From NCBI GenBank assembly GCA_963575745.1, contig CAUYUJ010003569.1:1-64000 (forward strand): a stretch of DNA of 64,000 bases, given 5' to 3'. The notes beneath the pieces are model-generated. The model saw only the letters and a list, made by a program, of their open reading frames with translations, was not told where the DNA came from and did not search any database. Positions 5,783-64,000 of this stretch are shown here, in pieces (the stretch's first letter is position 1; every line of letters starts with the position of its first letter). Source of the stretch: Prorocentrum cordatum. Its lineage: Eukaryota > Sar > Dinophyceae > Prorocentrales > Prorocentraceae. A program made the position numbers and the translations under genes.

Positions 5783-5789
5783 TCGCATG

Positions 5790-31580: not shown

Positions 31581-31602
31581 ACCGTAGCCATTTTGGCTCA
31601 AG
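31581..31602 (+). other. Relict dinoflagellate spliced leader (full length)
   Basis: All 22 nt of the DinoSL consensus are present (begins ACCGTAGCC, ends TTTTGGCTCAAG), 78 nt upstream of the ATG at 31681. At 31620-31634 the last 15 nt of the leader occur again (GCATTTTGGCTCAAG), each time followed by GGCCGTTTGGGCTTA. The block CATTTTGG...GGCTTA is therefore a 32-bp tandem duplication, or the trace of two rounds of leader addition and reinsertion. Confidence 0.9.
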
Positions 31603-31680
31603 GGCCGTTTGGGCTTAAGGCATTTTGGCTCAAGGGCCGTTTGGGCTTAGGCGAAGTGTGATACATCTTGTTAAAGTCAA

Positions 31681-44355: not shown

Positions 44356-44373
44356 AGTGATCATTTCCCCCCT

Positions 44374-44482
44374 CTGTGACAGAGGGGGTGTTTTTCGGAG
44401 GCCCTCTGTGACAGAGGGGGTGCGTTCGGAGGCCCTCTGTGACAGAGGGGGTGCGTTCGGAGGCTCTCTGCGACAGAGTTGC
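44374..44482. repeat. Tandem array of the CCTCTGTGACAGAGG palindrome
   Basis: Four units of about 31 bp: CCCTCTGTGACAGAGGGGGT followed by G(C/T)GTTCGGAGG. Each has a 7-bp stem with a one-base centre. It lies 20 nt after the preceding stop codon. A second, more variable array is at 56310-56550. Confidence 0.9.
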
Positions 44483-44906
44483 TCGTCATCCCGTTCCTCG
44501 TCATCCTGCTTCTTGATTTCGGATATGTCATGCTACCACTGCGCTCATCATCTTTGCGTCTGTGATCCTCGTCGTGTTTTTCCATGCGTCCTTTTCACAA
44601 TTTCCACCACATTATCCTCCGTTGCCGTTCTGGCCCGCCATCTACCTCGTCACTCTCTTTCGTCTGCATGTCCTTATTCTCTTCCGCTCTTTTTTCGCCC
44701 CCCCCCCTCTGGTTCGATTTCCGCTCTTCGTCCACTTCGTTCATCCGTTTCCAACCCCCCTTCCTTTCAAGTTCTCCGCCGTCCAATCACATCGCGTCGT
44801 CCGTCGCCGCTATGCTCAAACCATCCCGCGCCCGTGGGATCGCCCGCGAGCACCGGTGCAGCTGGGCCCGTCGCGGCCTAACGCGCGCCTGCGCCATCGT
44901 CTTGCA

Positions 44907-45350
44907 ATGGGCGATGCAGGCGGATACACATGGGGTGGCGCGGGAGGATGGTGGGATAGCCGCAGCAGCGGCTGGCGTGGCTGGGAGGACGGCCATGATT
45001 GGTCAGCGAGGGGTTGGAGAGACTGGCGACAAGACGGGCACACGCCAACGGAGGACGCCAAATGGCGCGATGGCCCTGCCGCCGCAGCAGCGGCGGCGGT
45101 CTCGCCTCAACGGCCGTCTCGCTTCGCCGCGCTTAGCGTTGTGAGCCCCCGCGCCCCTGGTCTCGGCATGCCCGAATTCGATAATTTCGCGAGGGCTGCC
45201 CTCCGAAACTCACCAGAACCTGGGAACACAGTTTCAGGAGAGGGGTCGGGATCCCGAGCCGCGCCTGCGGCGCAGGAGCCCCGCGCCACCGCAGCGGCGG
45301 CGGCGCGCGGGCCCCAGGATTTTGAGAAGTTTGATGTTAATTATTTTTGA
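44907..45350 (+). CDS. Gly/Trp/Asp-rich protein, N-terminal part; likely continues at 45347
   Basis: ATG at 44907. The first 60 residues are low complexity in Gly, Trp, Arg and Asp (WRGWEDG, WRDWRQDG), then poly-Ala from a hairpin element, then Pro/Ala-rich. The frame ends FEKFDVNYF-stop at 45348-45350. The -1 frame starting at 45347 reads straight on (LSYEERLGTSF...). The switch is at a T5 run. A single gene with a -1 frameshift, or a missing T, is the simplest reading. It resembles Gag-like N-termini in composition only. Confidence 0.55.
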   Translation: MGDAGGYTWGGAGGWWDSRSSGWRGWEDGHDWSARGWRDWRQDGHTPTEDAKWRDGPAAAAAAAVSPQRPSRFAALSVVSPRAPGLGMPEFDNFARAALRNSPEPGNTVSGEGSGSRAAPAAQEPRATAAAAARGPQDFEKFDVNYF

Positions 45351-45353
45351 GTT

Positions 45354-46096
45354 ATGAAGAGAGGCTCGGCACTTCGTTTAAGCAACACAATCAAGCGTTG
45401 AAATGGTGGCGCCATCTGAATGAAGACCCAACTGCCCCGTTCGAGTCAGAAGCCAAGTGGTTTGACAATGCGGAGCCCACCATGGTCGCTGTTTGCGACC
45501 ACGGTGCGAGGGCGAGCTTTGGTTTCAAAAGCGACGAGGAAGTCCCTTGGCGGTGGCAAGAGATGGCGGCGACGCTCAGGGAGGAAGATCTCAGGGAGGT
45601 CGTGGGGGGGGCCCGCAGCAGCGGGGCTCTGATCGGCTGTTCCCTCGAAGTCCGGCCAAACAGCTACGACCACATGCGTCAGAGTATTGTGCGCGCGCGA
45701 CAGTTCGCGGGGCAGCGGGTGAAAGTGAAGCTGCCGATGTGGGATTTCGTGTTGCACCGCGACGACGGGACAGGCGCCCGTTTACACCCGCTCTGGGGCG
45801 ACAGGAAGGTCGAAGCTCTGCCCCTCGTCCCCCGCGCGGACACGGTGAGGCCACCAGCCGCGGGTTTGGGCGGGGGCGACGGGTCAGGAACTTGCCGCCG
45901 GCACAAGGACCTCGGTGTGGAGCGCAAGGTCAAGTTCGACGCCGCCAGAGAGAAGGGGAGGCCGACGCCTTCTCAGGGGCCCCGCAGCAGCGGGGCCGCG
46001 GCGTCCAGCACCAGGCCCTCGGCGTCCGCAGCAGCGGCTGGCAAACCAGTAGTTTTGGGGCCGAATAGCTCCCCAGACGATTTGGTTGCGGAGTAG
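45354..46096 (+). CDS. Uncharacterised protein, C-terminal part of the gene at 44907
   Basis: Open from 45347 in the -1 frame relative to the upstream ORF, with stop TAG at 46094-46096. The first ATG in this frame is not at its beginning, so the part probably depends on the upstream ORF. It contains HNQALKWWRHLNEDPTAPFES, a middle with RPNSYDHMRQSIVRARQFAGQRVKVKLPMWDF, and a basic-to-Ala-rich tail in which three hairpin elements are translated (RSSG, RSSG, SAAAAG). The family is not recognised. Confidence 0.5.
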
Positions 46097-47037
46097 ATGG
46101 CTCCGCAGCAGCGGGGCTCGAACGAAGGGCGCGTCGCATTTCGGCAGGGGCGCGCGCGTCGGCCGCCGAGATCGGGAGCGCGCGTGCAGGCGCCGTGGCG
46201 CGATCTTCGTTAAGAAGTCTTCCCTCTCCTCCCTGTCCCCCCATCCCGCCGCCCTCAACGTCGGCTCCTCGCCGCCCGTTCCTCGTCGCTCCACGCCTGT
46301 TCGTTCTCCTCCAATTTCCTCTCCCGCTTCCTCGTTCTCTCCTTCCCATTTTTCCCTCCATCCCATTGCATCCCTGGCACCCCAGCGAAGTTCGCAGTTC
46401 GAAGTTTGAAGTTCGGAGTTCGAAGGTCGCAGTTTGAATTTCGAAGCTTCGCACTTCGAGGTTCGATCTTCGAACCTTCGTCATCTCGTCGTCGTAATCG
46501 TCGTCCTCGTTCGTCGTCGTCGTTCCTCGTCGGCGTCGATTGTCGTTGTCGTCGTCGCTCGTTGTCGTCGTCGCCGTCGTCGTCGTGGTCGGCGTCGTCG
46601 TCGTCGGTCGTCGTCGTCGCTAGTCGTCGTCGCTGGTCGCCGTCGTGGTCATCGTCCTCGTCGTCGTCGTCGTGGTCGTCGTCGTCCTCGTTGTCGCCGT
46701 CGTGGTCATCGTCCTCGTCGTTGTCGTGAAACGCCCCACGTAGGAGGAGCAGAGAAGGGAGCAAGGAGAAATGAGCACGGTGGAGGGAGGAGGGAGGATT
46801 GAACAGGAAGAGGAGGGTGCAGATGGAGGTAGAAGGGATGAGGTAGTTCAGAAGTGGGAGCAGCAGACTGGCGCAATGGGAAAAGCCATGTGAGTGCAGG
46901 GAGGGATGGAAATGCGATAAAGTGAAGCCGCAGCCGTTGCAGGTCTGCCTCCCGCCGCGCCCGCCCGCCTCCGCGACGGAACCGCGCAGGAGCCTCTGCC
47001 GAAGTCTCCGCAGCAGCGGGGGCTGCCAGAGGAGGCT
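46049..47037 (+). repeat. About 1-kb direct repeat, copy 1 (5' flank module)
   Basis: It begins TTTTGGGGCCGAATAGCTCC and ends in CCGAAGTCTCCGCAGCAGCG-GGGGCTGCC. It matches 47891-48945 closely, through a hairpin, a TCGAAG-rich stretch (46390-46480), a (GTC)n array and a G-rich GGAGGAG leader. Copy 1 lacks a 36-bp piece, present in copy 2, that carries the ATG used by the gene at 48862. Confidence 0.85.
46480..46735. repeat. (GTC)n trinucleotide array, copy 1
   Basis: CGTCGTCGT with TGG and CTC interruptions. It is part of the 1-kb repeat. A second copy is at 48325-48597. Confidence 0.9.
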
Positions 47038-47059
47038 CCTTCGCGGCCTTTGCGCCGCT

Positions 47060-47359
47060 ATGGCGAGCATCGCGGGCAAGTGCGACGTCGATGACTTCGA
47101 GCTCATCGCGACGGAGGGCAGTGTTTGGAACTGGGCGACCATGGTGGTGCGGTTTTTCCAGTGGCGCAATCGTTGCCGCCATGCACGCGCCGTTGGAGAG
47201 AAGGGCCAGATGCTCGTCGACCAGGCGCGGCAGATGATGGAGGAGGCGCGCCGTACCGAGGAGAAGGGCAAGATGATGCTTGAGATGTCGAAGAAGACGG
47301 TGAAGGACATCCCAGGCAATATTCGGTACTTTTGCCGCCAGCCGCACCAGGAGAGCTGA
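47060..47359 (+). CDS. Small coiled-coil protein, uncharacterised
   Basis: 99 codons from ATG 47060. The N-terminal half is mixed (MASIAGKCDVDDFELIATEG) with an aromatic segment WNWATMVVRFFQWRNRC. Residues of about 50-85 are a highly charged helix rich in Met, Glu, Lys and Arg (QARQMMEEARRTEEKGKMM), probably a coiled coil. The upstream frame is open without ATG. The 5' flank is the 1-kb module also found before the gene at 48862, and the 3' flank (47552-47770) is the module also found after the gene ending 55801. Confidence 0.5.
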   Translation: MASIAGKCDVDDFELIATEGSVWNWATMVVRFFQWRNRCRHARAVGEKGQMLVDQARQMMEEARRTEEKGKMMLEMSKKTVKDIPGNIRYFCRQPHQES

Positions 47360-47551
47360 GCGGCGATCGGAGCTGGGCCGATAGAGGAGGATGAGGAGGA
47401 AGAGGAGGGAGGATGAGGAGAGGAGGAGGAGGAGGGGGATGAGGAGTTGGAGGCAGCACGCGCACCCGCACAAAGAGCCGCCAGCCGCGCCCGTCTCCGA
47501 GCATGAAACCCGAGCTTGGCTGGAAGCGGGGAGGGTGGTAGCAGAAACAGC

Positions 47552-47770
47552 GCAGGACAGGGATGGGAGAGGTCACGCATCCGCCGCAGTAGCGGCGGTG
47601 GTACGACAGTTCTCATGGCGGCGCGGCGGTCGCTGAGAAATGGAGCACGTGCGTGGGCCTGCGTGCGCTTAATTATGGGTGCCTCTGGTCCCCTCCCCTC
47701 CTCTTCCTCCATGAGATCTCTCTCCTGGTGCATATCCCCTGCCAGGTCTCGTCCTGCTCCTCTATCCGCC
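47552..47770 (+). repeat. 3' flank module, copy 1
   Basis: It runs from GATGGGAGAGGTCACGCATC through CTCATGGCGGCGCGGCGGTC to ATCCCCTGCCAGGTCTCGTC. It is nearly identical to 55966-56175. It includes a hairpin of the AGTA type at 47580. Confidence 0.85.
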
Positions 47771-47786
47771 CCCCCTCGTCCGTTCC

Positions 47787-47888
47787 TGCCACCAGCCACA
47801 TGGGGCGTTCTCAATCAACACCACATTGAGTGTCCCCATGTGAAGGTTGCCCTTGTCATGAGGGCGGACTCGCAAGAGCCGAGTGGCT
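47787..47888 (+). pseudogene. 100-bp fragment of the 53309-55801 gene
   Basis: It matches 54277-54378 (CCAGCCACATGGGGCGTTCT to CGCAAGAGCCGAG), internal coding sequence of the 830-codon gene. Several substitutions and a stop (TGA) after the match mark it as a stray fragment lying between a 3' flank module and a 5' flank module. Confidence 0.8.
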
Positions 47889-47890
47889 GA

Positions 47891-48945
47891 AGAACTAGTA
47901 GTTTGGGGTCCGAACAGTTCCCCAGACGATTTGGTTGTGGAGTAGGTGGCTCCGCAGCAGCGGGGCTCGAATGAAGGGCGCGTTGCATTTCTGCAGGGGC
48001 GCGCGCGTCGGCCGCCGAGATCGGGGGCGCGCGTGCAGGCGCCGTGGCGCGATTTTCGTTATGAAGTCTTCCCTCTCCTCCCTGTCCCCCCATCCCGCCG
48101 CCCTCAACGTCGGCTCCTCGCCGCCCGTTCCTCGTCGCTCCACGCCTGTTCGTTCTCCTCCAACTTCCTCTCCCGCTTCCTCGTTTTTCCTTCCCATGTT
48201 CCCTCCATCCCAGTCCATCCCTGGCACCCCGGCGACGTTCGCAGTTAGAAGCTGGAAGTTCGGAGTTCGAAGATCGAAGTTTGAATTTCGAAGCTTCGCA
48301 CTTCGAGGTTCGATCTTCGATCCTTCGTCATCTCGTCGTCGTAATCGTCGTCCTCGTTCGTCGTCGTCGTTCCTCGTCGGCGTCGATTGTCGTCGTCGTC
48401 GTCGCTCGTTGTCGTCCTCGCCGTCGTCGTCGTGGTCGGCGTCGTCGTCGTCGTCGATCGTCGTCGTCGCTAGTCGTCGTCGCTGGTAGCCGTCGTGGTC
48501 ATCGTCCTCGTCGTCGTCGTCGCGGTCGTCGTTGTCCTCGTCGTCGCCGTCGTGGTCATCGTTCTCGCCGGCGTCGTCGTCGTCGTCGTTGTCGTGAAAC
48601 GCCCCACGCAGGAGGAGCAGAGAAGGGAGCAAGGAAAAATGAGCGCGGTGGAGGGAGGAGGGAGGACTGAACAGGAAGAGGAGGGAGCAGGCAGAGGTAG
48701 AAGGGATGAGGTAGTTCAGAAGTGGGAGCAGCAGACTGGCGCAAGGGGAAAAGTCATTTGAGCGCAGGGAGGGATGGCATTGCGATAAAGTGAATCCGCA
48801 GCCGTTGCAGGTCTGCCCCCCGCCGCGCCCGCCCGCCTCCGCGACGGGAGCGGCCCGGGGCATGGAGCAGCAAGGCGCGACTGGAACCGCGCAGGAACCT
48901 ATGCCGAAGTCTCCGCAGCAGCGGGGGCTGCCAGAGGAGGCCCCT
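47891..48945 (+). repeat. About 1-kb direct repeat, copy 2 (5' flank module)
   Basis: Homologue of 46049-47037. It contains the (GTC)n array at 48325-48597 and, at about 48849-48884, an extra 36 bp with the start codon of the next gene. Confidence 0.85.
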
Positions 48946-51469
48946 GATGCAGTTCCGCAGGGACTGGCAGATTCAGCACCAGCCTCCGCAGCAGCGGGGG
49001 AGGAGGGTGCAACGAGACTTCGGACATTGCTTTCGTCGCTGTCTGGTGCCCAGGAAAGCGTTTCGCGGAGCCTGCTGGTCGCTCAGGAAATGATGGAGAG
49101 GGGCGAGATCGAAGAGGCGCGGAAGTTAACGGCCGCCGCCAACCTCCTTGTAGCCACAACGGCTAAGGAGGCGGCTTCCGCAGCAGCGGGGGCATCCGTG
49201 GAGCCAGGCGCCGCCACAGTGGTAATCGAGCCTGGACAGAACGCCGCCCGCTCCGATGACCCGAGACCGAGATCTCCCTGCACGACTAATTGACGACAAC
49301 GGCAGGCTCTGATCGCAGCACGCAAACTGCGTGACAGCTCCCCCGCAGCAGCGGGGGCCCGCGTGACCAAGCCTCTCGCCCTGACCTCGAAGGCGCGGTC
49401 GCCAGCGCTTCCTGTCCAAGAGGGCTTCCCAGAGGAAGGCCGCCCGCACTTCCCATCGGAAGAGCGCTGCCCGAGCCATTCCAAGCCTCTTGTGCCCCTG
49501 CTGTACGACGACGAAGACCAGGTGCAGGAGGGGCAGGCAGAGGCGCGCGTGAATCTGGCTTTTGCTTCCCTCGCCCTGCGCGCGGGCGCCTCCCTGTCGG
49601 ATTGGGTCGCAGCTGTCAGGGACAGGCGCGAAGGGGTCGTCTTAGTCTCCTTCGAGCCTAGTGCACCCATCAATCGCGATCAGCGGAAGCAACATCTCGA
49701 CGATCTCATCCGCCAGAGTGGCTTCCACGGGAAGGTCGCGCGCGAGTGCGTCGGGGCTCTCCTCTGGGTTCCCGAGCGCGTCGAGCAGTGCGAGGTGCTT
49801 CGCGCGCACTCCCACGGGAAGTTCCTGGTTCAGGCCTGGTCGGTGACCCTGGCAGCGGTGGCTCACAATCCGAAAGCAAAGGAAGGCCAACTCTCCATAG
49901 CAGTGGGGGGCGTGTTCTTCCGACACCAGACGAGCCTCGCGGGAAACCCGTGGCCCGAAAACTTCCGCAACGGGCTGCGGAACCTGGCGTTGTGGCACCG
50001 AGTGCGTATTCTCGCCGGGGTCTTCGACGCAGACAGGGACGATCTTTCGGAGCTGCTCAGAAGTTGCGGCGCGTCTGGTACAGGCGTACTCGGCTTGGCT
50101 TTGTGGTGTCCGAAAAAAGATTGTCACGTGACGCGCCCGCACTACATCGTGATTCTTGGCCCCGCTCAGGTTCGCGAGTGCCCTGCGAGCGAGCAGCCGG
50201 ATCTGCCGCACTGGTGGAATCGGGTTTTCCAGCCTCCGCAGCAGGGGGGGCTCCTCACCAGGCTGGAGCACCGCCAGTTGGATTGGGCGGCGCGTCCGGC
50301 CTGGGTCAGGCTCACGGACGCGGAGCGCAAGGAGCAGGATACATATGACTGGCCGCACTTGCACAGGGTGATCCACAAGGCCCAGGATGCGAACCGCCTC
50401 ACGGAACACTGCCACACACAGTTCGTTTTTTTTTATAGAAGCCAAGAACAGGAAACCTGGCAAAGGCGCCGCGGCCAGGAAGAAGGATCGGAAGCGGGAA
50501 GCCAAGTGGGAAAAACGGCGGGGAAAGTGGGCGGAGACAGAACCCGAAGCAACAGCCTCCGCAGCAGCGGAGGCGCACGGAGACCAGGAGGAGGCGGAGA
50601 CAGAATCTGAAGCAGCAGCCTCCGCAGCAGCGGGGGCGCACGGAGCCCAGGAGGAGCTTGAGGGCGACGGGCGCGACGCCGTCGACTCCTGCAGCCCCGC
50701 GCCGCCCCAGGACGAACAGAGCAACCCTGACAGAGGTGAGAGGGAGGAGAAGAAGGAGAAGGAGAAGAAGAATAAGAACAAGAAGAAGAATAAGAATAAC
50801 GATATCAGGAGCAGAACCCCAAAGAGGACGAAGCCCTCGCAGCAGCGGGGGGGCAGCCGTTCCACACGCAGAGAGCGGGAGCAGAGGAGCAGAGACCGAA
50901 TGAGGAGAGTGCCCTCGCAGCAGCGGGGGCGCAGCCGCTCCAGACGCAGAGGGCAGGAGCAGAGGGGGCGCAGCCGCTCCAGACGCAGTGGGCAGGTGGA
51001 GGGCGGCGACCGCAGGGCGGCGTGGGCAGGGTGGCTCCTGCCCACGCCGCCCGCGCACCCACCCCACACAGGTCAGGCGGTGCTGATGCCGAGAGGATGG
51101 CGCCCGCTCCTCCCAGGCCGGATATGCCGTCCGCCAGGCATGCCGCCAATGATGCCACCACCACGGCCACCTCCCCCGCGTGGAGGAGGACGCCGCGGGC
51201 CCCCCCCGCTGGAGGAGACACCGCACCCTACGGCAGCGCGGCTCGTCCCGAGCCAGCCGCCGCACCCTCCGCCGAAGCGGCTCCTGCCAAGAGAGTCGCA
51301 GACGCCCCCCCCTCTGGCAGCGCCGCTCGTCCCGAGGCCGCCGCCGCAGCCTCCCCCGCCGCAGCTCCTCTCCAGGGAGTCGCCGCCTCCTGCGGACCCG
51401 TTTGCGTTCAGTGACGCGTTCGAGGCATTGCAGTCGCGGCGCCGCAGCCCTTCAAGCGACTCCAGCTGA
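48862..51469 (+). CDS. Large uncharacterised protein with Arg/Ser-Pro-rich tail; in-frame TGA and one frameshift
   Basis: The frame from ATG 48862 stays the same to about 50430, except for one TGA at 49291-49293 (codon 144). The stretch 49294-50430 contains no ATG at all, so it cannot be an independent gene, and I join the two. The domain at about 49560-50170 is globular (GVVLVSFEPSAPINRDQRKQ, LLWVPERVEQCEVL, ILAGVFDADRDDLSELLRSCG, ALWCPKKD, YIVILGPAQV). At a T9 run (50426-50434) the sense switches to another frame: EAKNRKPGKGAAARKKDRKR, an Ala/Glu region with hairpins, a Lys/Asn-rich stretch, RS-like repeats (SRSRRRGQEQRGRSRSRRSG) and a Pro-rich end with stop at 51467-51469. The function is unknown. 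The tail suggests RNA or chromatin binding. Confidence 0.55.
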
Positions 51470-51679
51470 CGGCGCGCGGCTGCGGAGACCTCCGCAGCAG
51501 CGGGGGTGGTCTCCGCAGCAGCGGGGGTTATCATAAGAGATCTGAGGCGCGGGCTCGGCGCGCGCGCGCGAGGAGCCAGGCGCTCGCATTGAGCGGCTGA
51601 GGAAATCGTCGTCGTTGTCGCCGTGCTCGTCGTCGTCGTTTGCTTTTTGCTGGGGGGGAAAGGAGGGCGAGCAAGAGGA

Positions 51680-51950
51680 GGAGGAGGAGGAGGAGGAGGA
51701 GGAGGAGGAGGAGGAGGGGTCCTGCAGGGACCAGGACCGACACCGGGACCGGGACCGGGACCAGGGGAAGAGCGGGACGGGGACCAGGACCGGGACAGGG
51801 ACGGGGAGCCCAGGACGGGCAGCAGGACCGACCACGGGACCGGGACCGGGACCGGGGCCGGGACCGGGAACGGGGGTGCTGGTCCCGGTCCCGGTCCCGG
51901 TGTCGGTGCTGGTCCCGGTCCCGGGCCCCCGGTCCCGGTCCCGCTCCATG
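51680..51950. repeat. (GGA)n followed by (GGGACC)n foldback
   Basis: GGA triplets at 51678-51718, then CCGGGA/GGGACC hexamers (51725-51880) that turn into the complementary GGTCCC hexamers (51880-51945). The block can fold on itself. Confidence 0.85.
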
Positions 51951-52011
51951 TGTCAGCTCTTTGTCCCGCTCCCGATCTCTGCCGTGCCGTTTGGGTTCGA
52001 GATCGCCAGCC

Positions 52012-52482
52012 ATGAAGGTTAGGAAGCCCGGCACAAGGATCGGGCGATGCCGCATCGGCGAGAAGAGGAATAGGAAACCCGACACAAGGACGGGACGATG
52101 CCGCGTCGGCGAGAAGAGGGCTTTTCGGAAACCGGACCACAGACCTCATTCGAGCAAGCGCGCTGGGGCGGCGGCTCGACCCACGGCAGCGTCGGCGAAG
52201 GCGGCCGCGCGGCCGCTAGCTCGGCGCAAGGCGAGCTCCAAGAAACAAGCCCTCGCAGTAGCGGGGGCTGCTGTAGCCCTCGCAGCAGCGGGGGCTGCTG
52301 TCTTGGAGCGCGGTGGGTTGTGGGATGAGAAGACTGCTCGGAGGACAGGCGTGGAAGATGACGATCCATTCGATCAGGCACTTTGGTACCGCGACCATTG
52401 GGGCAACTGGTGCAAACTAGGGTCCAAGATGCCGCCAGTCGGCAGCTCCTGGCAAGAAGGCGCCGACCCCCTTCGGATGTAA
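52012..52482 (+). CDS. Small basic protein, uncharacterised
   Basis: 157 codons from ATG 52012. The start is two copies of a basic repeat encoded by an imperfect tandem DNA repeat of about 54 bp (RKPGTRIGRCRIGEKR, then RKPDTRTGRCRVGEKR). An Ala-rich helix made partly of two hairpin elements follows (AVAGAAVALAAAGAAV). The conserved-looking C-terminus is WDEKTARRTG...DPFDQALWYRDHWGNWCKLGSKMPPVGSSW. The end is Trp-rich and looks folded. The family is unknown. Confidence 0.55.
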   Translation: MKVRKPGTRIGRCRIGEKRNRKPDTRTGRCRVGEKRAFRKPDHRPHSSKRAGAAARPTAASAKAAARPLARRKASSKKQALAVAGAAVALAAAGAAVLERGGLWDEKTARRTGVEDDDPFDQALWYRDHWGNWCKLGSKMPPVGSSWQEGADPLRM

Positions 52483-52978
52483 TTACGGGGCGGATGAACA
52501 CGACAGTGCCCCCAGATGGTTGACTGTACGGTCCTCAGGATGACCGCGACATCCCGAGCGCACAAGGGGAGCGCCCCTCCGCAGCAGCGGAGGGATGTCG
52601 CGCGAATTTCGCCGAGGGGGGGTGACCTCGGCGGAGGGGCGCGCGCGCGCGCGGGGGAGCGCGGTTTCGCGCGTCGCGTGCGGCATCGCATGCGGTGTGG
52701 GGAAAAACACGACATCTGTGCTGTCATCTGTGTCCTGCTCTCTCCTTTGCTTCGCTTCCCCTTGCACTCCCTCCTGCAATCCCCCGCCCGCCATTATGTC
52801 TTTGTAGTGATCATCGCTTCCATTCACGCAACTCACACAGCGCCCCCTTCTCTCGCAGATGGGTTCGGGGTGGGAAATCGTTCTCTCACAGAGGGGGGGC
52901 CGATGTATCAATGATTCTCCTGTTCAGGCGGATGTGCGCGTATCGAAAAACTGAGAAGGCCGCGTCGACCCGCCGTTC

Positions 52979-52979
<1 letters not shown>

Positions 52980-53064
<85 letters not shown>

Positions 53065-53074
53065 TCTCTCTCTG

Positions 53075-53116
<42 letters not shown>

Positions 53117-53125
53117 CCTCTTTCT
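52980..53125. repeat. (CT)n microsatellite
   Basis: More than 130 bp of CT with a few GT interruptions, between the hairpin-bearing genes. It lies about 190 bp before the next start codon. Confidence 0.95.
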
Positions 53126-53308
53126 GCCTTTCCTCTCCTTCTCCTTTTGCTCAAGTGCGGGCAGGCCGCGGATCCGTGAGGCCCCTCCTTCTGTCCGCGC
53201 GCGCGACAGGCACTCGCGCTTCAAGCGGGGCCCCGCAGCAGCGGGGGCAACCGTCGCGGAGCATCTGTTTTGGAAGCTGCCCCCGCAGCAGCGGGGGCGC
53301 CTGGATAG

Positions 53309-55801: not shown

Positions 55802-55954
55802 TCCCGCCGCAGCAGCGGAGGGTGCGCGAAACGGGGCGGCAGATGACAGCGGCCGATGATCCACCCGTCGCAGCCCGCAGCCGTCAGCTGGAGGGGAGGA
55901 GGAAAAGGGCGGGGAGAGGAGGTCGAAGAGGGAGGGGGGAGGGGGGCAGCAGAA

Positions 55955-56175
55955 ACAGCACAAGACAGGGATGGGAGAGGTCACGCATCCGCCGCAGTAG
56001 TGTCGGTGGTACGTCAATTCTCATGGCGGCGCGGCGGTCGCTGAGAAATGGGGCAAGTGCGAGGGCCTGCAAATGCGGAAAATGTGAGTGCCTCTCGTCC
56101 CCTCCCCTCCTCTTCCTCCATGAGATCTCTCTCCTGGTGCATATCCCCTGCCAGGTCTCGTCCTGCTCCTCTCCC
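55955..56175 (+). repeat. 3' flank module, copy 2
   Basis: Homologue of 47552-47770, beginning about 150 bp after the stop codon at 55801. Its hairpin at 55992 is degraded (GCAGTAGTGTCGG). Confidence 0.85.
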
Positions 56176-56309
56176 TCTATGTTCGTCCTGCCCTCCCCTC
56201 ACGCCTCGCCTCCGTCTCCGTCCCCCCTGTCCGTTCCTGCCTCCCTCCCGTGTCCTGTTTTCCTCTCTCCGTGCTCATCGTCCTGTTCATCGTCCTGCCG
56301 TCCTGTTCG

Positions 56310-56550
56310 CGGGGCGCTCTGTGGGACAGAGGGGCGGTCGAAGCACGCAAGGCCGAACCCCTCTGTGACAGAGGGGGGTCGCGCTTTTCCGCCCCACCCC
56401 CTCTGTGACAGAGGGGTGGCGCGTTTTTCCACGCCCCCCCCCCTCTGTGACAGAGGGGGGGGGTCGTGCTTTTCCGCGCGCCCTCCTCTGTGAAACAGGG
56501 GTGGTCGTTCGATCAGGACGCCCCCCCCCTGCGGGACAGAGGGTCGGTCA
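56310..56550. repeat. Array of CCTCTGTGACAGAGG-type palindromes, copy 2
   Basis: Five or six units: CTCTGTGGGACAGAGGGG, CCCTCTGTGACAGAGGGG (three times), CTCTGTGAAACAGGGG and CTGCGGGACAGAGGG. TCGCGCTTTTCC-type linkers separate them. They lie between two genes, like the array at 44374. Confidence 0.85.
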
Positions 56551-56817
56551 GAGCACACAAGGCCCCCCCTCAAGGGGCAGAGGAGCGGTCAAGGGACAGG
56601 GAAGGCAGCTGTGCTCGTTCGGAGAGAAGGAGGGGGATGGGTTGGATGAGATGGAAAGAAGCTCGTGGAGGGAGCATGATGCTGATGAGGAGTAGGAGGA
56701 TCTGTTCGAGACGAGGAGTCCGCTTTCCATAGCCGTTTTCAGGCGGTTCACTTGTGAGGGGAGCCGACACCTAGGACGCGCGCGCCTTCGCAGCAGCGAG
56801 GGCTTGCGCACGGCGGC

Positions 56818-57755
56818 ATGAAACGCAAGGCAGAGGAAACATGGCGGGAGGTCGCTGTCGGGAAAGCAGCGCGCCAAGATGGCGCGAGCATGGGGGTGCT
56901 CTGCGTGACGGGCGGGCTGTGCCGAAATCACGAGGGAGCAGCGGGATTTGTTCTGGAATGCGAGGAGCGCTGTGTTGTCTTGGGCGGCGAGGAAAGCCTA
57001 GAAGCCTTCGTGCCCGTCGGAAAGCACCGCCTGTGGATGCTCAAGGTGGTCGGTGGTCACAGTGCCGTGAAGGGCGCCTTGAGCGAAACAAACTTGTTAG
57101 AGCAATTGCATGGGAAGTTTCGCGCTGGAGAAGGATACAACGTGGATGAAGCGGCGACTCCTGTGAAAGAGGCCCCCGCAGCAGCGGGGGTTGCAGCAGG
57201 GTCTCCCGCAGCAGCGGGAGAAAGGTCGGGATCCCATGGCGGATCTCCTCGGCACCGTCAAGGCCGCATCGAAAGCGAAGAAAACCCCTGAGAAACAGAA
57301 AGGGTTTCCTCGTGGCACGCTCTGCAGAGTAACCGTGCCGATGTCTCCTAAGCCAGATGAGGCCGACACGAAAGAGGTTAGTGTGTATGAGAACAAGTAT
57401 GGGCAACTACTCGTTCAGAGTCAGGACCTGCCTTGGCTTCTGTATTACCTGTGCGAGGAGAGCCAGGGCAAAAGCGTCCCCGAACCCAACGACGACGACG
57501 AGGACGACGCTTTGGACCACCAGGTGGTGCCCCTCTGGGATGTGGACACTGGAGGTCAAAGGAGGGCCAATGGCAGGCCGAACATGGGCCTCCAGGATTC
57601 AGGATCTGAGCGAGGAGAAATGGTCCACAGGCGTGGCGTTGACGGAAGTGACGACGCCCTTGAAACAGTCCACCCGTGCGCAGCAGAAGCAGGTTCTTCT
57701 AGCGTTCTTGGAGGACGTGGTCCGGAAAGCCATCAAGCAGGAAACAGAGAAGTAA
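56818..57755 (+). pseudogene. Paralogue 1 of an uncharacterised protein, two frameshifts
   Basis: The start ATG 56818 (MKRKAEETWREV...) is shared with the paralogue at 58624, as is 125 bp of leader. Near 57224 it lacks two bases relative to the paralogue (GAAAGGTCGG against GAAAGAGGTCGG), which shifts the frame and gives a stop at 57291. The sense continues in the next frame (DPMADLLGTVKAASKAKK...YENKYGQLLVQSQDLPWLLYYL). It seems to shift again near 57540 and ends at 57755 (QVLLAFLEDVVRKAIKQETEK). Two hairpins at 57175 and 57205 give APAAAG and SPAAAG. The domain LQVQ-PWLLYYL suggests a folded core, but the family is unknown. Confidence 0.6.
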
Positions 57756-58168
57756 TGTCCTCGTTATCCGCTCGCTGGCGCGCGCCGCAGCAGCGGCGCG
57801 CTGACCGCTACAACGGCTTTTTTTATGCAAATAGACTCGGTGTATGCACCGCGCCAGCGGCGCGCTGACCGCTGAGGTGGATGCCTGCGGGTTCCCGTCG
57901 ACTGGACAGGGGTTAGGGCACGCGCGGGGGATCGCGAGCCTGCGGCTCTCCAGCGCTCGCGCGCTAGAGGACAAAAGGAACTCGCGGAATCTGGCGAGGG
58001 CGGGGCGGAGGGGGGGAGGAGAAGGAGGAGCAACAGCAGCAGCAGCAGCAGCACCCGCAGCAGCACCGACAGGAGGATCATTGCGAGGATGCGGCCGTTT
58101 GCTTGCCCTGCGGCGCTGGGCTCGAGACAAGAGGGCGGCCGCGTGTGCGCGCGCATGGCTTCGGCATC

Positions 58169-58294
58169 ATGGCCGCCGCAGCCGCTCCGCCCCCAGACCC
58201 AGGCGACGCTCGCCCTGCAAACGCGCCTCTGCGGGTCGGGCACGACCGCGAGGTCAACGAATGTGGAGTTTTTATATCAACAAGACAAAACTAA
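58169..58294 (+). pseudogene. Broken copy of the small protein at 60065
   Basis: ATG 58169 gives the same MAAAAAPPPDPGDARPANAP start as 60065. Two bases are missing after GAGGTCAACGAA relative to that copy, giving an early stop at 58292. The downstream part (DPDRVLMNPRKL...IFGFG, then a hairpin) is still recognisable in the shifted frame to about 58440. Confidence 0.7.
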
Positions 58295-58623
58295 AGACCC
58301 CGACAGAGTGCTCATGAATCCACGGAAACTACAGAGGCCAATCTTCGGATTCGGGTAGTTATGTTATGCGCCGCAGCAGCGGCGCGGCTTGCCATTATGA
58401 ATCTGGCAAACGCATATGGAAGAATATTCATTTATGCTCGCAGTGGCCGTGGAAAAGCGACCACAAGAAGTGGTTAGGTTTTGGAGTCCGATGAGAAGTA
58501 GGAGGATTTGTTCGAGACGAGGAGTCCGCTTTCCATAGCCGTTTTCAGGCGGATCACCAGTGAGGGGAGCTGACACCTAGAACGCGGGCGCCTTCGCAGC
58601 AGCGAGGGCTTGCGCGCGGCGGC

Positions 58624-59160
58624 ATGAAACGCAAGGCAGAGGAAACATGGCGGGATGTCGTTATCGGGAAAGCAGCGCGCCAAGATGGCACGAGCATGGG
58701 GGTGCTCTGCGCGGCGGGCGGGCTGTGCCGAAGTCACGAGGGAGCATCGGGATTTGCTCTGGAATTTGAGGAGCGCTATGTTTCCTTGGGCGGCGAGGAA
58801 AGCCTAGAAGCCTTCGTGCCCGTCGGAAAGCACCGCCTGTGCATGCTCAAGGTGGTCCGTGGTCTCAGCGCCGCGAAGGGCGCCTTGAACGAAACGACAA
58901 TGTTAGAGCAAGTGCTTGGGAAGCTTCGCGTCGGAGAAGGGGGCAACGTGGATGAAGCGTCGACCCCTGTGAAAAACGCTTCCGCGGCAGCGGGGGTTGC
59001 AGCGGGATCCCCCGCAGCAGCGGGAGAAAGAGGTCGGGATCCCATGGCGGATCTCCTCGGAACCGTGAAGGGCGCATCGAAAGCGAAGAAGGTGGCGGCG
59101 CGTCGCCAACCGGAGAAAACCCCTGAGAAACAGAAAATATTGTCTCGAGGCACGCTCTGC
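58624..59160 (+). CDS. Paralogue 2 of the 56818 protein, 3' part replaced
   Basis: ATG 58624. It is intact across the site where paralogue 1 is shifted (ERGRDPMADLLGTVKGASKAKK), with an 11-residue addition before TPEKQK. Homology to paralogue 1 stops at RGTLC near 59158. The frame then runs through a (TA)n microsatellite to 59571, which is unlikely to be native protein. Either an intron starts near 59160 or the gene is truncated. The hairpin at 58592 lies 14 bp before the start and two more lie inside (58980 degraded, 59010). The family is unknown. Confidence 0.55.
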
Positions 59161-59224
59161 CTCTCGCTCCGTGCGGTCGTCTTGGGCGGCGTCGGGCCTC
59201 CGCTGACTGATTACATGATGCATA

Positions 59225-59312
59225 TATGTATATCTTGTGTATGTATGGTGTGTCGACGTATATGTATGTATATACGTATATATGTATATATATATATATA
59301 TGTATATATAAC
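59225..59312. repeat. TA/TGTA microsatellite
   Basis: TATATGTATA repeats. It breaks the reading frame of the preceding gene's 3' part into low-complexity Tyr/Ile/Cys. Confidence 0.9.
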
Positions 59313-60064
59313 ACGGACGCAGGGGCGTGGCCCGCGGCCCAGGGCGGGGCCCGAGACTCTGGGACAGGACACAGGGCCTCATCATCGTAGGATGCTCATC
59401 ATTCTCATCATCGCTATGATGGGGGGGAGGAGGGGACAGCTACCAGCTGCGCGCTGGCGCCACCGCCGCTCCCCCGCGCCCGCTGGCGCATCCGCAGCGC
59501 GGCTGCGGGAGGGGCTGCGCCTCAATTCCTGCAGAGGCGGCCTGCAGGAATGTTGCACTTTTGGCGTCTAGTACAAACGCCCGAGCGGCCCGCTTTTTTT
59601 TTGGGGGGGGCTCTTGGTTCACGGTGGAAGAGGAGACTATCATCATCCCCCGTGCCGCGTTCGCCTTCCCTCGACGACGATGTCGACGACTTCCCACATT
59701 CTGGCCTTGTTTTCTGGGGGGTGTTCTCGGAGTCGTTCGGGGCGTTCGTTCGTGTGTGCATGCTTCTGAGTTTTCTGCGCGTCGTTCGGGCCGCTCGTCC
59801 TGGTGTGAGTCGTTCGGGCCCCTCCTCACCAGCCCATCTCACAGCAGCAACCCTCGCGAAGCATGCCGACGGTCGTGTGTTTTTGTTTTTTTTGTTTGTT
59901 GTTCAGGCGTGTGTCCGCTGGTCCCCGCATATCTCCCTTGTTCCTCGTTCCTCTCGCCCCCTTGTACATCCTCCTTGTGGGGGGATGCGGCCGTTTGCTT
60001 GCCCTGCGGCGCTGGGCTCGAGACCAGGGGGCGGCCGCGTGCGCGCGCGCATGGCTTCGGCATC

Positions 60065-60346
60065 ATGGCCGCCGCAGCCGCTCCGCCTCCAGACCCAGGA
60101 GACGCTCGCCCTGCAAACGCGCCTCTGCGGGTCGGGCACGACCGCGAGGCCAACGAATTCGTAGAGTTTTGGTACCAAGAAGACAAAAAGAAAGACCCCG
60201 ACAGAGTGCTCATGAACCCACGGAAACTAAAGGGGACAATATTCGGATTCGGGTACGTTATGCGCCGCAGCAGCGGCGCGGCTTGCCATTATGACTCTGG
60301 CAGACGCATATGTAAGAAGATTCATTTCTGCTCGCAGTGGCCGTAA
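60065..60346 (+). CDS. Small uncharacterised protein
   Basis: 93 codons from ATG 60065. The start is Ala/Pro-rich. The core is FVEFWYQEDKKKDPDRVLMNPRKLKGTIFGFG. It is then YVMRRSSGAACHYDSGRR, where RSSG is encoded by the hairpin at 60263, and ends KKIHFCSQWP. The last codons overlap the open frame of the OTU-like gene (from about 60337), so it may be the first exon or an upstream ORF of that gene. A broken copy is at 58169, and about 350 bp around both copies are similar. Confidence 0.5.
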   Translation: MAAAAAPPPDPGDARPANAPLRVGHDREANEFVEFWYQEDKKKDPDRVLMNPRKLKGTIFGFGYVMRRSSGAACHYDSGRRICKKIHFCSQWP

Positions 60347-61698
60347 CAGCGGAGGCGTCCGTAGGTCCTGCTGGCGCGCATGGCGCCGACGCTATCGCCG
60401 AGGCCGCTTCCGCAGTGGGGGCTGCCCTGAAGGACTCCGCGGCAACAGCAGCTCTCTCAGCAAAGGGGGTTGCCCCTGTCGCTTTCCCCCAACCCGCCCC
60501 GCTTGCTGTTCGCGACATAGCGGAACCCGTGCTTCCAGGGGCGGAAGTTGCTGCAGTGACCGCTTGTGAACAGACAGCCGCGAACGCAGGCGCTGCGGTT
60601 GCCCCGCCCGCGCCTGCAGGGGCACTTTCAGAACAAGGCCAGAGGTGCTTCGAGAAATTGATGAAGTTGTCGCGCAGTATTCGCGGAAGGCCGGGGGGAG
60701 GCCGAGAGTGGATAGGGTATTCTGCTTTCGTAATCTTTGCGCTTCTGCGGAAGGTGCGCGTCTACGTGTGGGAAGGACGGAACGGAGTCGACCTTTGCAA
60801 AGCTGTCTTGCCGCCGTGGAAACTGGAGGAGTTAACCCGCGAGCCTGCGGTGGACGCGATCGCGTGTTGCGCAGTCCCCCGAGAATCGGGGCCACCGGAC
60901 TGGGCCCCCGTGTCGGAGGAGTATCCTTTGTTTCTATGCAATCATTTTATCGCAGGCGTCTCCACCGACTTTGTGGATTTCACGGGAGATGCTTCGACGG
61001 TGGACGGTTTCTATTCGGCTCTCGGTGTGTTCGTCGTGTCCACAGTCGCAGACGGGGACTGCGGTTTGGATTGCATGTTGCGGATGACCCAGGAGGTTTC
61101 CACGCGAGAGTCTCGCAGGGAGCTCCGCCAGGACAGTTGCTCTCTCCGACCACCCTGATCCTTCGCTTCCATCTCTGCTGCCCCCACATGCTCTCCCCCT
61201 CCTTCTCTCCCCATTTTGCCTTCATGCCTCTCCCATCGCGCCCCCCTCTCCCCTCGTGCCCTCCCCACCGAGTCTCCTTGCCCCTCCTCCATGCCCGCCC
61301 GCCAGGACATCGCGGACTACATCGTGCAAAGGGTGCGTCTGGCGTGGTTCCTCGACGCGATGGTCCTGACACAAGAAGTCACGCAGGATGACGTCCAGGA
61401 GCTTCGTCGCCTGCAGAGCGCCTTAGACGACGAAGAACTTGTCCCGCAGCCTGGCCACGCCGCCCCTCCGAGAGCACAGGGCGTTGCCGCCGCAGCAGCG
61501 GCGGCGCCACCTGAGGACTTGGCAGTGGTGGAAGTCGACGCCGAGGCTGTCTGTCAGGAGCTCGTGCAAGCCATCCAATGGTGGACAGGACTGACAGACG
61601 CTGCGTGCGCCCTGGACGTAGCTCGGGAGTTGATGCCCGCAGAGCGGGAGGAGCAGCTCTTGAGGTTCGCCGCGGTGGCAGAGCAGATTTGCTTCTGA
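60337..61698 (+). CDS. OTU-like cysteine protease with one intron
   Basis: The frame is open from 60337, but its first ATG is 60661. The true start may be upstream in another exon. An Ala-rich N-terminus precedes a domain with REWIGYSAFVIFALLRKVRVYVWEG and then VVSTVADGDCGLDCMLRM. Asp-Gly-Asp-Cys is the nucleophile motif of OTU deubiquitinases (Cys codon 61060-61062), followed as usual by a helix and R-x2-LR. A pyrimidine-rich intron, 61132-61305, joins RRELRQ to DIADYIVQRVRLAWFLDAM without loss of frame. Without splicing the ORF stops at 61158. The 3' part has a hairpin (61488, VAAAAAAAP) and a C-terminal helix. The catalytic His is not identified. A ubiquitin-directed role is inferred from the family. 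Confidence 0.7.
61132..61305 (+). other. Introner-like intron flanked by an 11-bp direct repeat
   Basis: CCGCCAGGACA occurs at 61125-61135 and at 61299-61309. Splicing within the repeat (after CCAG) removes 174 bp of pyrimidine-rich sequence with GA...AG-type ends and joins two OTU-gene segments in frame. Direct repeats at both splice sites are the signature of introns that arrived as transposons. Confidence 0.75.
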
Positions 61699-61754
61699 TT
61701 TTTTTGGTTTTTCGGTTTTCACATTGCAAATGTGGCGCGCGCCTGGTGTCCAGA

Positions 61755-62130
61755 AGGTGCGCTGGGGGCGACCAAAACAACGCCAGGAAGAGCGCCTGGG
61801 AGCGCGCTGAGGCGAGCGCCCGGGCGAGCCAAGAAGAGCGCCGAGAACAGCGCCCAGGAAAGCGCCATCAAGAGTGCCCAGAATATGGCCCAGACGCGAA
61901 TCTGGAAGAGCGCCCGAAAGAGCGCCCGGAAGTGCGCCCAGCAGCGACCGATTTTGCGACCGATTTCGCTTCCGATTTCGCGTCCGATTTTTTGTGTGTC
62001 GATTCAATACTAAAACAAATCAGACGCAAATCGGATTTAAAATCGGACAAAAACCGGACGCAAATCGGACGCAAAATCGGACGCAAATCGGACGCAAAAT
62101 CGGACGCAAAATCGGATGTAAAATCGGACG
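61755..62130. repeat. AAGAGCGCC and ACGCAAATCGG short tandem repeats
   Basis: 61775-61940 is made of (A)AGAGCGCC(C)GG units. 62025-62125 is made of GACGCAAA(A)TCG units of 10-11 bp, with the complementary GATTTCG-type words at 61955-61995. No gene. Confidence 0.8.
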
Positions 62131-62404
62131 CTGATGGCGTCGACCATTTCTGGGCGGATGAGGCAGCGTATCGCGGTGCATCATGGCGAGGTCTGGTAGG
62201 GTGTGTATTGCGGACCCATGCGCGCAATTCAGCGTTGGAGTTTTAGCGATGTGGCGAACGACAAACTGCGATATCGCGTTGTGTCCAGGTCGGGCCAAAT
62301 CGACAGAAAAATCAGATCGCCGCTTCAGGAACCGCGGCTGCGAGCGCAAAGCCCCCGCCCAGAACAAGTAGCGCGTGGTGGTCCCGTCGCTCCTGTGCTC
62401 GAGG

Positions 62405-64000
62405 ATGGAGATAGCGGGTGCTTTCGACGAGCACATGCGCTCTTTAGGCTGGGCGCCTGGAGACCGCTTTCCGTATGGAGGGGCGCGTTCATTCATGGAT
62501 GCGTGGGACTGGGGTTCCATGTCCCGTCTCTCTCTCAGGAAGCGCACGCGCTTTGTGCGGCGCTGGCGCAAGGCTTTTCTGTCGTCGAAATACGCCTCCG
62601 CAGTAGCGGAGGCTGTTCGGCATCCGCGGGGACACGAGACGCAGCACGGGCAGGGGCGCCTCCTGAAGTGGAAAGGGCGGAAAAGGATACCACAACAGGG
62701 ACAGGGGCCAGCTCGAAAATGCCCCTGGCTGCGGCAAGCTCTGTTTGAATGGTGGAGTTCCTTTCGGCACAGTGTGGATTGGAAGATGATCACAAGTGGA
62801 ATGCGAAGTACCCAAAGAGAGCCAGCGAAGATAACAAGGTTCACGCAAAGCATGCTCCAGACCAAAGCGTTGGAGCTCATGAGCGAGTGCGTCGCGCAGC
62901 AGCTGCGGATCGGGCAGCGACCCGCCGCCGTGGAGTTGAGGTCGCGCTGGTGGGCCTCCTGGCGCAAGGAATACGGCCTCAGCATGCGGTACCCGAACAG
63001 GAAGTACAAGTGCCCGCTGCCCGTCTTGGAAGAGCGCCTCGAGCGAGGCTGGCTGAACGTGTTTAGGGTGCGCGCCGCGTGCGTGCTACTCAACGAGCAG
63101 GATCCCGAGATGGAGAACTTCGACCAGTCGCCTTTCCACCACAATGAAACAGGATCAGCTGGCGTGAGGACCCTCGCAGTAGCGGGGGTCGAAGTGCCAC
63201 TGGTGGAGTGCCACGGCGCGGTGCGGGAGCGGTGGACGGCCAATTTCATGACAATGAGCGACAAGGATCGACTGCGGAGAGAAGGCCCCCCACCGATGGA
63301 GTGCATGTTCAAGGCGGAGGGGGGAGGAGAGAAGTTGAGGCCGCGCCTGCTCGAACACCTTCGGCGCCGAGGGTTCGGCAGATGGGTGTCGGCGACCACC
63401 AGCACCAAGGGGTCTTACCGGACACCGTGCGTGCTCGCGTACCTGGACCGCCACCTCCCTCATCTGCCAGAGCCTCCGCAGCAGCGGGAGTGGAGAATTA
63501 TGATGGCGGATGATCATGGCCCTCACTTGTCCCCGCTTGTGAGTAAGCTATGTTGGTCTCGAGGGTACGTGTTCATCCCGCACGGGGGCGGCGTAACCCC
63601 AATCCTCCAAACTGTGGACACACATCTGAATCAACACGCCAAGCGCGAGTACATGAAGAGAGAAGGAGCCGCGCTGCTGAGAGCCATGAGGCTGGGCCAG
63701 TGCGTCCCACAGCTGGACAAGTTAGAATGCATTGACTTGATGGTGGAAGTGATGTCCCAAATGAGTCTTCACTTGGCTGCGGCAGACGGGTACTGGGAAA
63801 CTGGTTTCAAGGCAAATCTGTGGGATGCGGACTTGGACGCGCGCATATGCAAGGAGGCAGGCCATTTCTGGAGAAAGTTGGGGATGCGTGAGAAGGTCGC
63901 CGCCGCAGTAGCGGAGGTCGAAGAAGAGGTGCAGGCGGGGCGCTTGAGATGGACTTACAAAGACATCATGCGATTGGTCCTCCCGCACCCTCGACGCGGC
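62405..64000 (+). CDS. DDE-type transposase-like protein (pogo/Tc1-like), runs off the window
   Basis: The frame is open from 62372 to the window end with ATG at 62405, at least 532 codons. No stop is reached, so it is easily missed by ORF callers. The N-terminus is WAPGDRFPYGGARSFMDAW. A basic region follows, then helical DNA-binding-like segments (WASWRKEYGLSMRYPNRKYK, RLERGWLNVFRVRAACVLLN). The catalytic core has NFDQSPFHHNETGS (Asp240), then RERWTANFMTMSDKDR and ECMFKAEG. It continues with MMADDHGPHLS (Asp369/370) and IPHGGGVTPILQTVDTHLNQHAKREYM (Asp405). This matches the D...D(about 35)D order of the pogo/Tc1 DDE superfamily. Three hairpins (63171, 63475, 63902) and one at 62595 are inside the ORF. 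It could be an active transposase or a domesticated one. Confidence 0.75.
   Translation, partial: MEIAGAFDEHMRSLGWAPGDRFPYGGARSFMDAWDWGSMSRLSLRKRTRFVRRWRKAFLSSKYASAVAEAVRHPRGHETQHGQGRLLKWKGRKRIPQQGQGPARKCPWLRQALFEWWSSFRHSVDWKMITSGMRSTQREPAKITRFTQSMLQTKALELMSECVAQQLRIGQRPAAVELRSRWWASWRKEYGLSMRYPNRKYKCPLPVLEERLERGWLNVFRVRAACVLLNEQDPEMENFDQSPFHHNETGSAGVRTLAVAGVEVPLVECHGAVRERWTANFMTMSDKDRLRREGPPPMECMFKAEGGGEKLRPRLLEHLRRRGFGRWVSATTSTKGSYRTPCVLAYLDRHLPHLPEPPQQREWRIMMADDHGPHLSPLVSKLCWSRGYVFIPHGGGVTPILQTVDTHLNQHAKREYMKREGAALLRAMRLGQCVPQLDKLECIDLMVEVMSQMSLHLAAADGYWETGFKANLWDADLDARICKEAGHFWRKLGMREKVAAAVAEVEEEVQAGRLRWTYKDIMRLVLPHPRRG

What the first reader, a model, noticed from the sequence alone, without database searches (positions are those of the whole stretch)
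44959..63920. Swarm of about 45 short hairpins inside and between genes, confined to one gene cluster
The palindrome CCYCCGC-AGCA-GCGGRGG (core CGCAGCAGCG) occurs about every 420 bp from 44.96 kb to the window end. I found no full-stem copy in the preceding 44.9 kb of the same high-GC DNA. Stems vary together (CCTCC/GGAGG, CCTTC/GAGGG, GCGCC/GGCGC, TCCC/GGGA) while the loop stays AGCA, or AGTA in a few copies. That pattern is expected of a mobile or structurally selected element, not of a codon repeat. I know of no described eukaryotic nuclear element with this form. The nearest analogies are bacterial REP sequences and mitochondrial GC clusters.
Basis: seen in the sequence. Interest (0 to 1): 0.9.

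Follow-up and report, generated by a model that had tools for sequence, protein, structure and literature searches.

The report
Giant algal transposon carrying RNA hairpins
A 24-thousand-base jumping gene, present in roughly 240 places in a dinoflagellate alga's genome, carries some 55 tiny look-alike hairpins, all facing the same way, through all of its genes, apparently as marks that something in the cell reads on its RNA.

Summary
The hairpins are real: 43 exact cores (38 AGCA-loop, 5 AGTA-loop) from 44,961 on, all on the + strand. They are not scattered over host genes. They lie in one copy of a 24.3-kb DNA transposon (window 44,336 to the end; contig 44,336-68,624) with 30-bp inverted ends, a Mos1-like transposase and a TA target site. 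There are about 240 copies (479 ends; 0 in control). Five copies hold 285 hairpins on the coding strand and 0 on the other; 119 kb of flanking DNA holds none.

They look selected as sense RNA. Stems covary; G-U pairs outnumber A-C mismatches 32 to 8; cores vary 3.3 times less than other columns. In homologues known only as proteins, residues flanking A-V-A covary as base-paired codons would (50 of 128, 30 expected, 0 of 5000 shuffles). Two tests gave no support: sense against antisense folding, and recent stem changes.

Best reading: dispersed recognition tags on a mobile element's RNA, like the AXXA packaging stem-loops of STNV and MS2; the reader protein is unknown. A self-moving palindrome is disfavoured.

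The parts
44336..64000 (+). Transposon copy, first 19,665 of 24,289 bases; continues outside the window to contig position 68,624 (L023)
   Evidence: Sharp shared ends in 5 copies; ~240 copies from 479 ends
44336..44365 (+). Left 30-bp terminal inverted repeat; its first TA is the presumed target-site copy. The right repeat (outside the window) has one mismatch in this copy
44370..44478 (.). Subterminal palindromic repeats CCCTCTGTGACAGAGGG
48715..51466 (+). Region equivalent to the 916-aa ORF of copy C114 (in this copy split over frames); homologues P0083, P0084; RS-rich end seen by eye
53309..55801 (+). 830-aa ORF, fold unknown, 11 homologues P0001-P0011, 5 hairpins in this copy
62372..64000 (+). 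Transposase ORF (876 aa stop to stop, continues beyond the window), RNase H-like fold closest to Mos1/SETMAR, 71 homologues
44956..44975 (+). hairpin AGCA
45078..45097 (+). hairpin AGCA
45609..45628 (+). hairpin AGCA
45978..45997 (+). hairpin AGCA
46022..46041 (+). hairpin AGCA
46099..46118 (+). hairpin AGCA
47004..47023 (+). hairpin AGCA
47580..47599 (+). hairpin AGTA
47948..47967 (+). hairpin AGCA
48909..48928 (+). hairpin AGCA
48982..49001 (+). hairpin AGCA
49174..49193 (+). hairpin AGCA
49339..49358 (+). hairpin AGCA
50555..50574 (+). hairpin AGCA
50618..50637 (+). hairpin AGCA
50833..50852 (+). hairpin AGCA
50911..50930 (+). hairpin AGCA
51488..51507 (+). hairpin AGCA
51509..51528 (+). 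hairpin AGCA
52249..52268 (+). hairpin AGTA
52276..52295 (+). hairpin AGCA
52575..52594 (+). hairpin AGCA
53229..53248 (+). hairpin AGCA
53279..53298 (+). hairpin AGCA
54035..54054 (+). hairpin AGCA
54473..54492 (+). hairpin AGCA
54756..54775 (+). hairpin AGCA
55265..55284 (+). hairpin AGCA
55328..55347 (+). hairpin AGCA
55803..55822 (+). hairpin AGCA
56784..56803 (+). hairpin AGCA
57172..57191 (+). hairpin AGCA
57202..57221 (+). hairpin AGCA
57781..57800 (+). hairpin AGCA
58367..58386 (+). hairpin AGCA
58590..58609 (+). hairpin AGCA
59008..59027 (+). hairpin AGCA
60261..60280 (+). hairpin AGCA
61486..61505 (+). hairpin AGCA
62594..62613 (+). hairpin AGTA
63170..63189 (+). hairpin AGTA
63472..63491 (+). 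hairpin AGCA
63899..63918 (+). hairpin AGTA

Best explanation
Shown: the hairpins belong to a 24.3-kb, about 240-copy, Tc1/mariner-like DNA transposon. Each of five complete copies carries 54-62 of them (about 20 nt: 8-bp stem, loop A-G-C/T-A), all in the orientation of the element's transposase and 830-aa genes. Inferred, well supported: they are kept because they fold in the element's own sense RNA. Inferred, less certain: they work as dispersed recognition tags. An RNA-binding protein, element-encoded or host, reads the AGYA loop on a freely variable stem many times along each transcript and so marks the element's RNAs for assembly into a particle, export, translation or protection. New tags arise in conserved genes mostly in place, by substitution or short conversion at near-palindromes, where the protein tolerates Ala-Val/Ala-Ala, Arg-Ser-Ser or Gln-Gln.
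For: 285 sense and 0 antisense cores in 128.7 kb of five copies, 0 in 119 kb of flanks. Stem covariation 0.892 against 0.721 +/- 0.021; G-U 32, A-C 8 (p 9e-5; all 59 hairpins 42 and 9). Core columns variable 10 of 601 against 1299 of 23,413, GC-matched control words 1093 of 19,518; in 16 copies of the right end 3 of 160 against 399 of 4699. AGYA loops make up 37 of 66 four-base-loop strong hairpins in copy C114. Even spread over the element. Homologues of three genes keep the signature. A-V-A occurs 229 times against 60 V-A-A and 82 A-A-V in 84 homologues, and its flanking residues covary as paired codons, 50 of 128 against 30.4 +/- 4.0 (z 4.8), while 18 other tripeptides give z -1.7 to +1.7. 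Copy C18742 has a perfect hairpin where 15 of 15 other copies have a shorter near-palindrome.
Against: Sense folds are not significantly better than antisense folds (41 and 33 of 56, p 0.16), and recent stem changes break pairs about as often as they keep them (5-copy alignment 11 paired to unpaired, 13 paired to paired; 16-copy right end 5 and 2). Outer stem columns are only modestly conserved (23 of 568 against 1004 of 17,860 elsewhere). The A-A-A class in homologues shows no codon covariation (z 1.0). No transcript or binding data exist here; no RNA-binding protein was identified. The direction of the C18742 difference is not certain.
Confidence: 0.5

Rival explanations
1. RNA hairpins that serve host processing of the transcript (splicing, decay, small-RNA production), for the host's and not the element's benefit.
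For: The same RNA-level signs.
Against: Kept in homologues of three genes across divergent relatives, hard to explain if the tags harm the element. 8-bp stems are short for Dicer-type enzymes (general knowledge).
Confidence: 0.13
2. A self-propagating micro-palindrome inside the transposon, like REP, Rickettsia palindromic elements or mitochondrial GC clusters.
For: Several hairpins lie in tandem or segmental duplicates; one hairpin present in 1 of 16 copies replaces a near-palindrome; in linkers of homologues gaps are common at motif sites.
Against: One orientation only, 285 to 0; no hits above background outside the family by totals; ungapped substitution at conserved positions; G-U over A-C asymmetry.
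Confidence: 0.12
3. A polar duplex-DNA signal of the transposon (for example for replication, packaging of DNA or transposase loading) in which only the double-strand sequence matters.
For: Fixed core with one orientation.
Against: Stem covariation and G-U over A-C and codon covariation need a folded single strand; a folded single DNA strand is not excluded.
Confidence: 0.12
4. By-product of mutation: near-palindromes made perfect by template switching and spread by gene conversion, without function.
For: The C18742 difference looks like such an event.
Against: Fixed AGYA loop, one strand, low core variability.
Confidence: 0.08
5. Protein-level feature: Ala-rich linkers coded by chance as palindromes.
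For: Frame 1 (A-A/V-A) is the commonest, 12 of 19 in three ORFs.
Against: Frames 2 and 3 also used, specific codons, occurrence throughout the element, codon covariation.
Confidence: 0.05

Closest known systems
Dispersed RNA packaging signals of STNV and MS2 (PMC3593212, abstract and passages)
   Same: Many short stem-loops through the genome, AXXA loop, stem sequence largely free
   Different: There an encapsidated RNA genome and a known coat protein; here a DNA transposon and no known reader
Tc1/mariner transposons (Mos1, SETMAR)
   Same: Catalytic fold, inverted ends, TA target
   Different: 24 kb with several further ORFs and hairpins; typical members are far smaller (general knowledge)
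Giant eukaryotic transposons such as Teratorn and Polintons (PMC6431247, passages)
   Same: Large multi-gene DNA element with inverted ends
   Different: Another transposase; the passages seen name hairpins only for Helitrons
Rickettsia palindromic elements (PMC2229807, passages)
   Same: Palindromes inside ORFs and between genes
   Different: 105-146 bp and inserted; these are about 20 nt, one orientation, confined to a transposon
Dinoflagellate introner elements (PMC10666404, passages)
   Same: Short inverted repeats in a dinoflagellate
   Different: Introners are introns with repeats at both ends; here the arms are 4 nt apart and many lie inside open frames

Membership tests
Tc1/mariner superfamily (carrier element) | RNase H-like DDE/D transposase | tested here: met
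Tc1/mariner superfamily (carrier element) | Terminal inverted repeats | tested here: met
   30 bp in 5 copies, 479 ends
Tc1/mariner superfamily (carrier element) | TA target-site duplication | tested here: met
   TA at both ends in 5 copies with unrelated flanks; removing the window copy and one TA gives a 2798-aa open frame across the junction. An unoccupied site was not found (searches not answered)
Dispersed packaging signals | Many stem-loops with AXXA loop and free stem | tested here: met
Dispersed packaging signals | Bound by a coat protein that packages the RNA | not testable with these tools
   no transcript or protein-binding data; 830-aa protein without a fold match
REP / Rickettsia-type mobile palindromes | Dispersed over the host genome in both orientations | tested here: not met
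REP / Rickettsia-type mobile palindromes | Precise insertion relative to empty homologous sites | tested here: inconclusive
   186 ungapped and 124 gapped comparisons over 37 site groups, one complex difference among 16 copies
Introner elements | Intron bounded by inverted repeats | tested here: not met
   Arms 4 nt apart; many sites inside open frames

The most novel reading that the evidence does not exclude
The transposon's RNA carries a dispersed assembly code of the kind known from small RNA viruses: an element-encoded protein binds the AGYA loops cooperatively and gathers its transcripts into a ribonucleoprotein or virus-like particle, so that a DNA transposon would have an RNA-packaging stage or a self/non-self RNA mark. 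The hairpins are re-created in place in divergent lineages, with a loop shift from AGTA to AGCA in this one.
Probability: 0.15. Interest if true: 0.95.

Novelty: categorically new. Interest (0 to 1): 0.78.

Why it matters
My ten answered literature searches (open-licence papers only, listings seen) showed no DNA transposon described with a dense, one-orientation, covarying set of RNA hairpins through all its genes. If confirmed, it is a new way for a mobile element to label its own RNA and a natural case of a second code kept inside protein genes. It would also help explain how giant elements amplify in multi-gigabase dinoflagellate genomes. It is directly testable with RNA pull-down and existing transcriptomes.

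Tried and rejected
Rejected or empty: codon repeat or Ala linker; Rfam at gathering threshold, 0 hits; tRNA, 0; dispersal over the host genome (totals and 100 listed places only). Relatives in viral contigs: none of 25 and 76 stretches that matched a pattern; in prokaryote contigs: none of 13. Two viral contigs with the 18-mer (L001, L002) were read by eye as unrelated, one hit each; the 12 contigs were not examined. One isolated 14-mer hit (L015) has no similarity to copy C114. Pfam: 0 families for 10 ORFs of the second half and 6 ORFs of copy C114; only weak single hits in alignments A1 and A2. PDB by sequence: 2 weak unrelated hits and 0. Fold of the 830-aa protein: no match below E 1, model pLDDT 60, inconclusive. 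Sense against antisense folding and recent stem changes gave no support. Alignment A2 holds 17 of the 71 transposase homologues; searches used all P proteins held at the time (82, 84, 84). The homologue searches scored only the 7,987-7,995 candidates sharing most words. Not reached: number of copies with the C18742-type difference, an unoccupied insertion site, and loci with pairs of AGTA hairpins a few kb apart (C12336, C7792 and others).
Full report
What was checked. CGCAGCAGCG occurs 38 times and CGCAGTAGCG 5 times on the + strand, between 44,961 and 63,913. Neither form, on either strand, occurs in window 1-44,335. An order-3 Markov model expects 0.8 AGCA cores in the second part.

What it lies in. 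The genome (G000, 4.13 Gb, 21,875 contigs) is held; the window is the start of a 77,968-base contig. A 14-mer core has 3578 hits genome-wide against 401 for the reversed control. Of the 100 listed places 97 fall into clusters on seven contigs with recurring internal spacings, and 3 are single. Comparing the window contig with four of these contigs showed one repeated element with sharp ends: contig 44,336-68,624 here (24,289 bp) and copies of 24,094, 28,114, 24,321 and 27,896 bp, aligned blocks about 94-99% identical. Both ends carry the same 30 bp, inverted (one mismatch in the right end of this copy), with unrelated flanks. The first 27 bases of that end occur 479 times with up to 2 mismatches, 0 times in the control, so there are about 240 copies. 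Of 54 best-scored transposase matches 53 have no stop inside.

The hairpins belong to the carrier. Five copies hold 285 sense and 0 antisense cores in 128.7 kb; 119 kb of their flanks hold none. The genome-wide excess of the 14-mer (3578 minus 401, 3177) is close to 13 per element (the count listed for copy C114) times about 240. This is arithmetic on totals, since only 100 places are listed. The AGTA 16-mer has 245 hits against 25; some listed AGTA places, such as pairs on C12336 and C7792, could not be read and may be a second family.

They are kept as structure. In 39 non-redundant hairpins the five outer pairs form in 0.892 of cells against 0.721 +/- 0.021 when shuffled. G-U pairs outnumber A-C mismatches 32 to 8 (all 59: 42 to 9). 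That is expected if the + strand folds as RNA, and not if only the duplex or the other strand matters. Pairing beyond the eighth pair is near the independent expectation, so the unit is about 20 nt. In the five-copy alignment 10 of 601 core columns vary against 1299 of 23,413 others and 1093 of 19,518 columns of GC-matched control words. In 16 copies of the right end it is 3 of 160 against 399 of 4699. Results that do not support it: outer stem columns are only modestly conserved (23 of 568 against 1004 of 17,860). Stem changes among five copies go from paired to unpaired 11 times and stay paired 13 times, in the 16-copy right end 5 and 2. Sense folds are not significantly better than antisense folds (41 and 33 of 56 with mean pair probability above 0.5; p 0.16).

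They are not codons. In three ORFs of copy C114 the 19 hairpins use frame 1 twelve times, frame 2 twice and frame 3 five times. Ten of 18 A-A-A tripeptides use GCA-GCA-GCG, for which codon use outside hairpins predicts 1.3%, and 3 of 4 A-V-A use GCA-GTA-GCG.

They are old and keep being remade. Homologues of three element genes carry the same signature peptides. In 82 homologues the peptide pattern occurs 219 times against 11 in shuffles. In 84, A-V-A occurs 229 times, V-A-A 60 and A-A-V 82 times. A hairpin coded GCA-GTA-GCG requires the codon before and the codon after to pair. Among 128 thinned A-V-A contexts 50 are compatible against 30.4 +/- 4.0 expected (0 of 5000 shuffles; z 4.8), while 18 other exact tripeptides give z from -1.7 to +1.7. 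One of these is A-A-A (z 1.0), so that class is not shown for homologues. Of two wider patterns, RA. gives -0.2 and A.A, which contains A-V-A, 3.7. Over 37 motif-site groups in alignments A1 and A2, sequences without the motif are ungapped in 186 comparisons and gapped in 124 (my tally). Conserved domains are mostly ungapped (for example KVAAAVAEV to VVDKEIKNV), linkers mostly gapped. At TLAVAG the script counts 11 gapped because one sequence opens a gap beside it. So in conserved domains the motif arises by substitution; in linkers insertion is not excluded. Among 16 copies one, C18742, has a perfect AGCA hairpin where 15 of 15 others have a shorter near-palindrome. C18742 is among the more diverged copies, so loss in the others is possible but would need a compound change.

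How it most likely works. One strand, a fixed AGYA loop, a free covarying stem, many copies along the element and maintenance over long divergence are the features of a repeated RNA recognition site. The nearest worked-out parallel is the AXXA stem-loop that STNV coat protein prefers, with about 30 potential copies in its genome and indifference to stem sequence; the MS2 operator loop is also AXXA (PMC3593212, abstract and passages). I infer that a protein reads these loops on the element's RNA. Which protein, and whether for assembly, export, translation or immunity, is open. The step from structure to function is inference.

Novelty. Giant transposons, dispersed packaging signals and palindromes in ORFs are each known (PMC6431247, PMC3593212 and PMC2229807, passages). 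Their combination in a DNA transposon did not appear in the listings of ten searches of the held library, which lacks most subscription papers. The carrier alone would be a new variant of a known kind; the hairpin system is what I rate as new.

Noticed in passing
window 61667-62325: Stretch of about 660 bp, with CAAATCGGACG tandem repeats at 62016-62131, not aligned in the four other complete copies compared.
   Followed up: no
window 56358-56543: Internal cluster of the same palindrome (CCCTCTGTGACAGAGGG) that repeats near both transposon ends; possibly a buried old end.
   Followed up: no
C303 copy, after window-equivalent 45,341: Nested insertion of about 3.9 kb; the long ORFs listed in it carry no hairpins.
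   Followed up: no
C3538:56662-56878: Two opposed transposon ends only 217 bp apart, a MITE-like derivative; not read.
   Followed up: no
C12336:940991-944073, C7792:495272-498326, C9691:164021-167858, C12830:305917-308210: Pairs of AGTA hairpin cores a few kb apart, possibly a second family or altered copies; letters not available.
   Followed up: partly
window 43489-44335 and contig 68625 on: The copy interrupts a long host open frame; its translation is unidentified (weak UreF hit below cut-off).
   Followed up: partly
window 31587-31649: Repeated relict resembling the dinoflagellate spliced leader (leader recalled).
   Followed up: no
window 5683-7068: ORF with an endonuclease/exonuclease/phosphatase domain (PF03372, E 5.4e-6).
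   Followed up: no
window 34382-35338: 343-bp tandem array, 2.8 copies.
   Followed up: no
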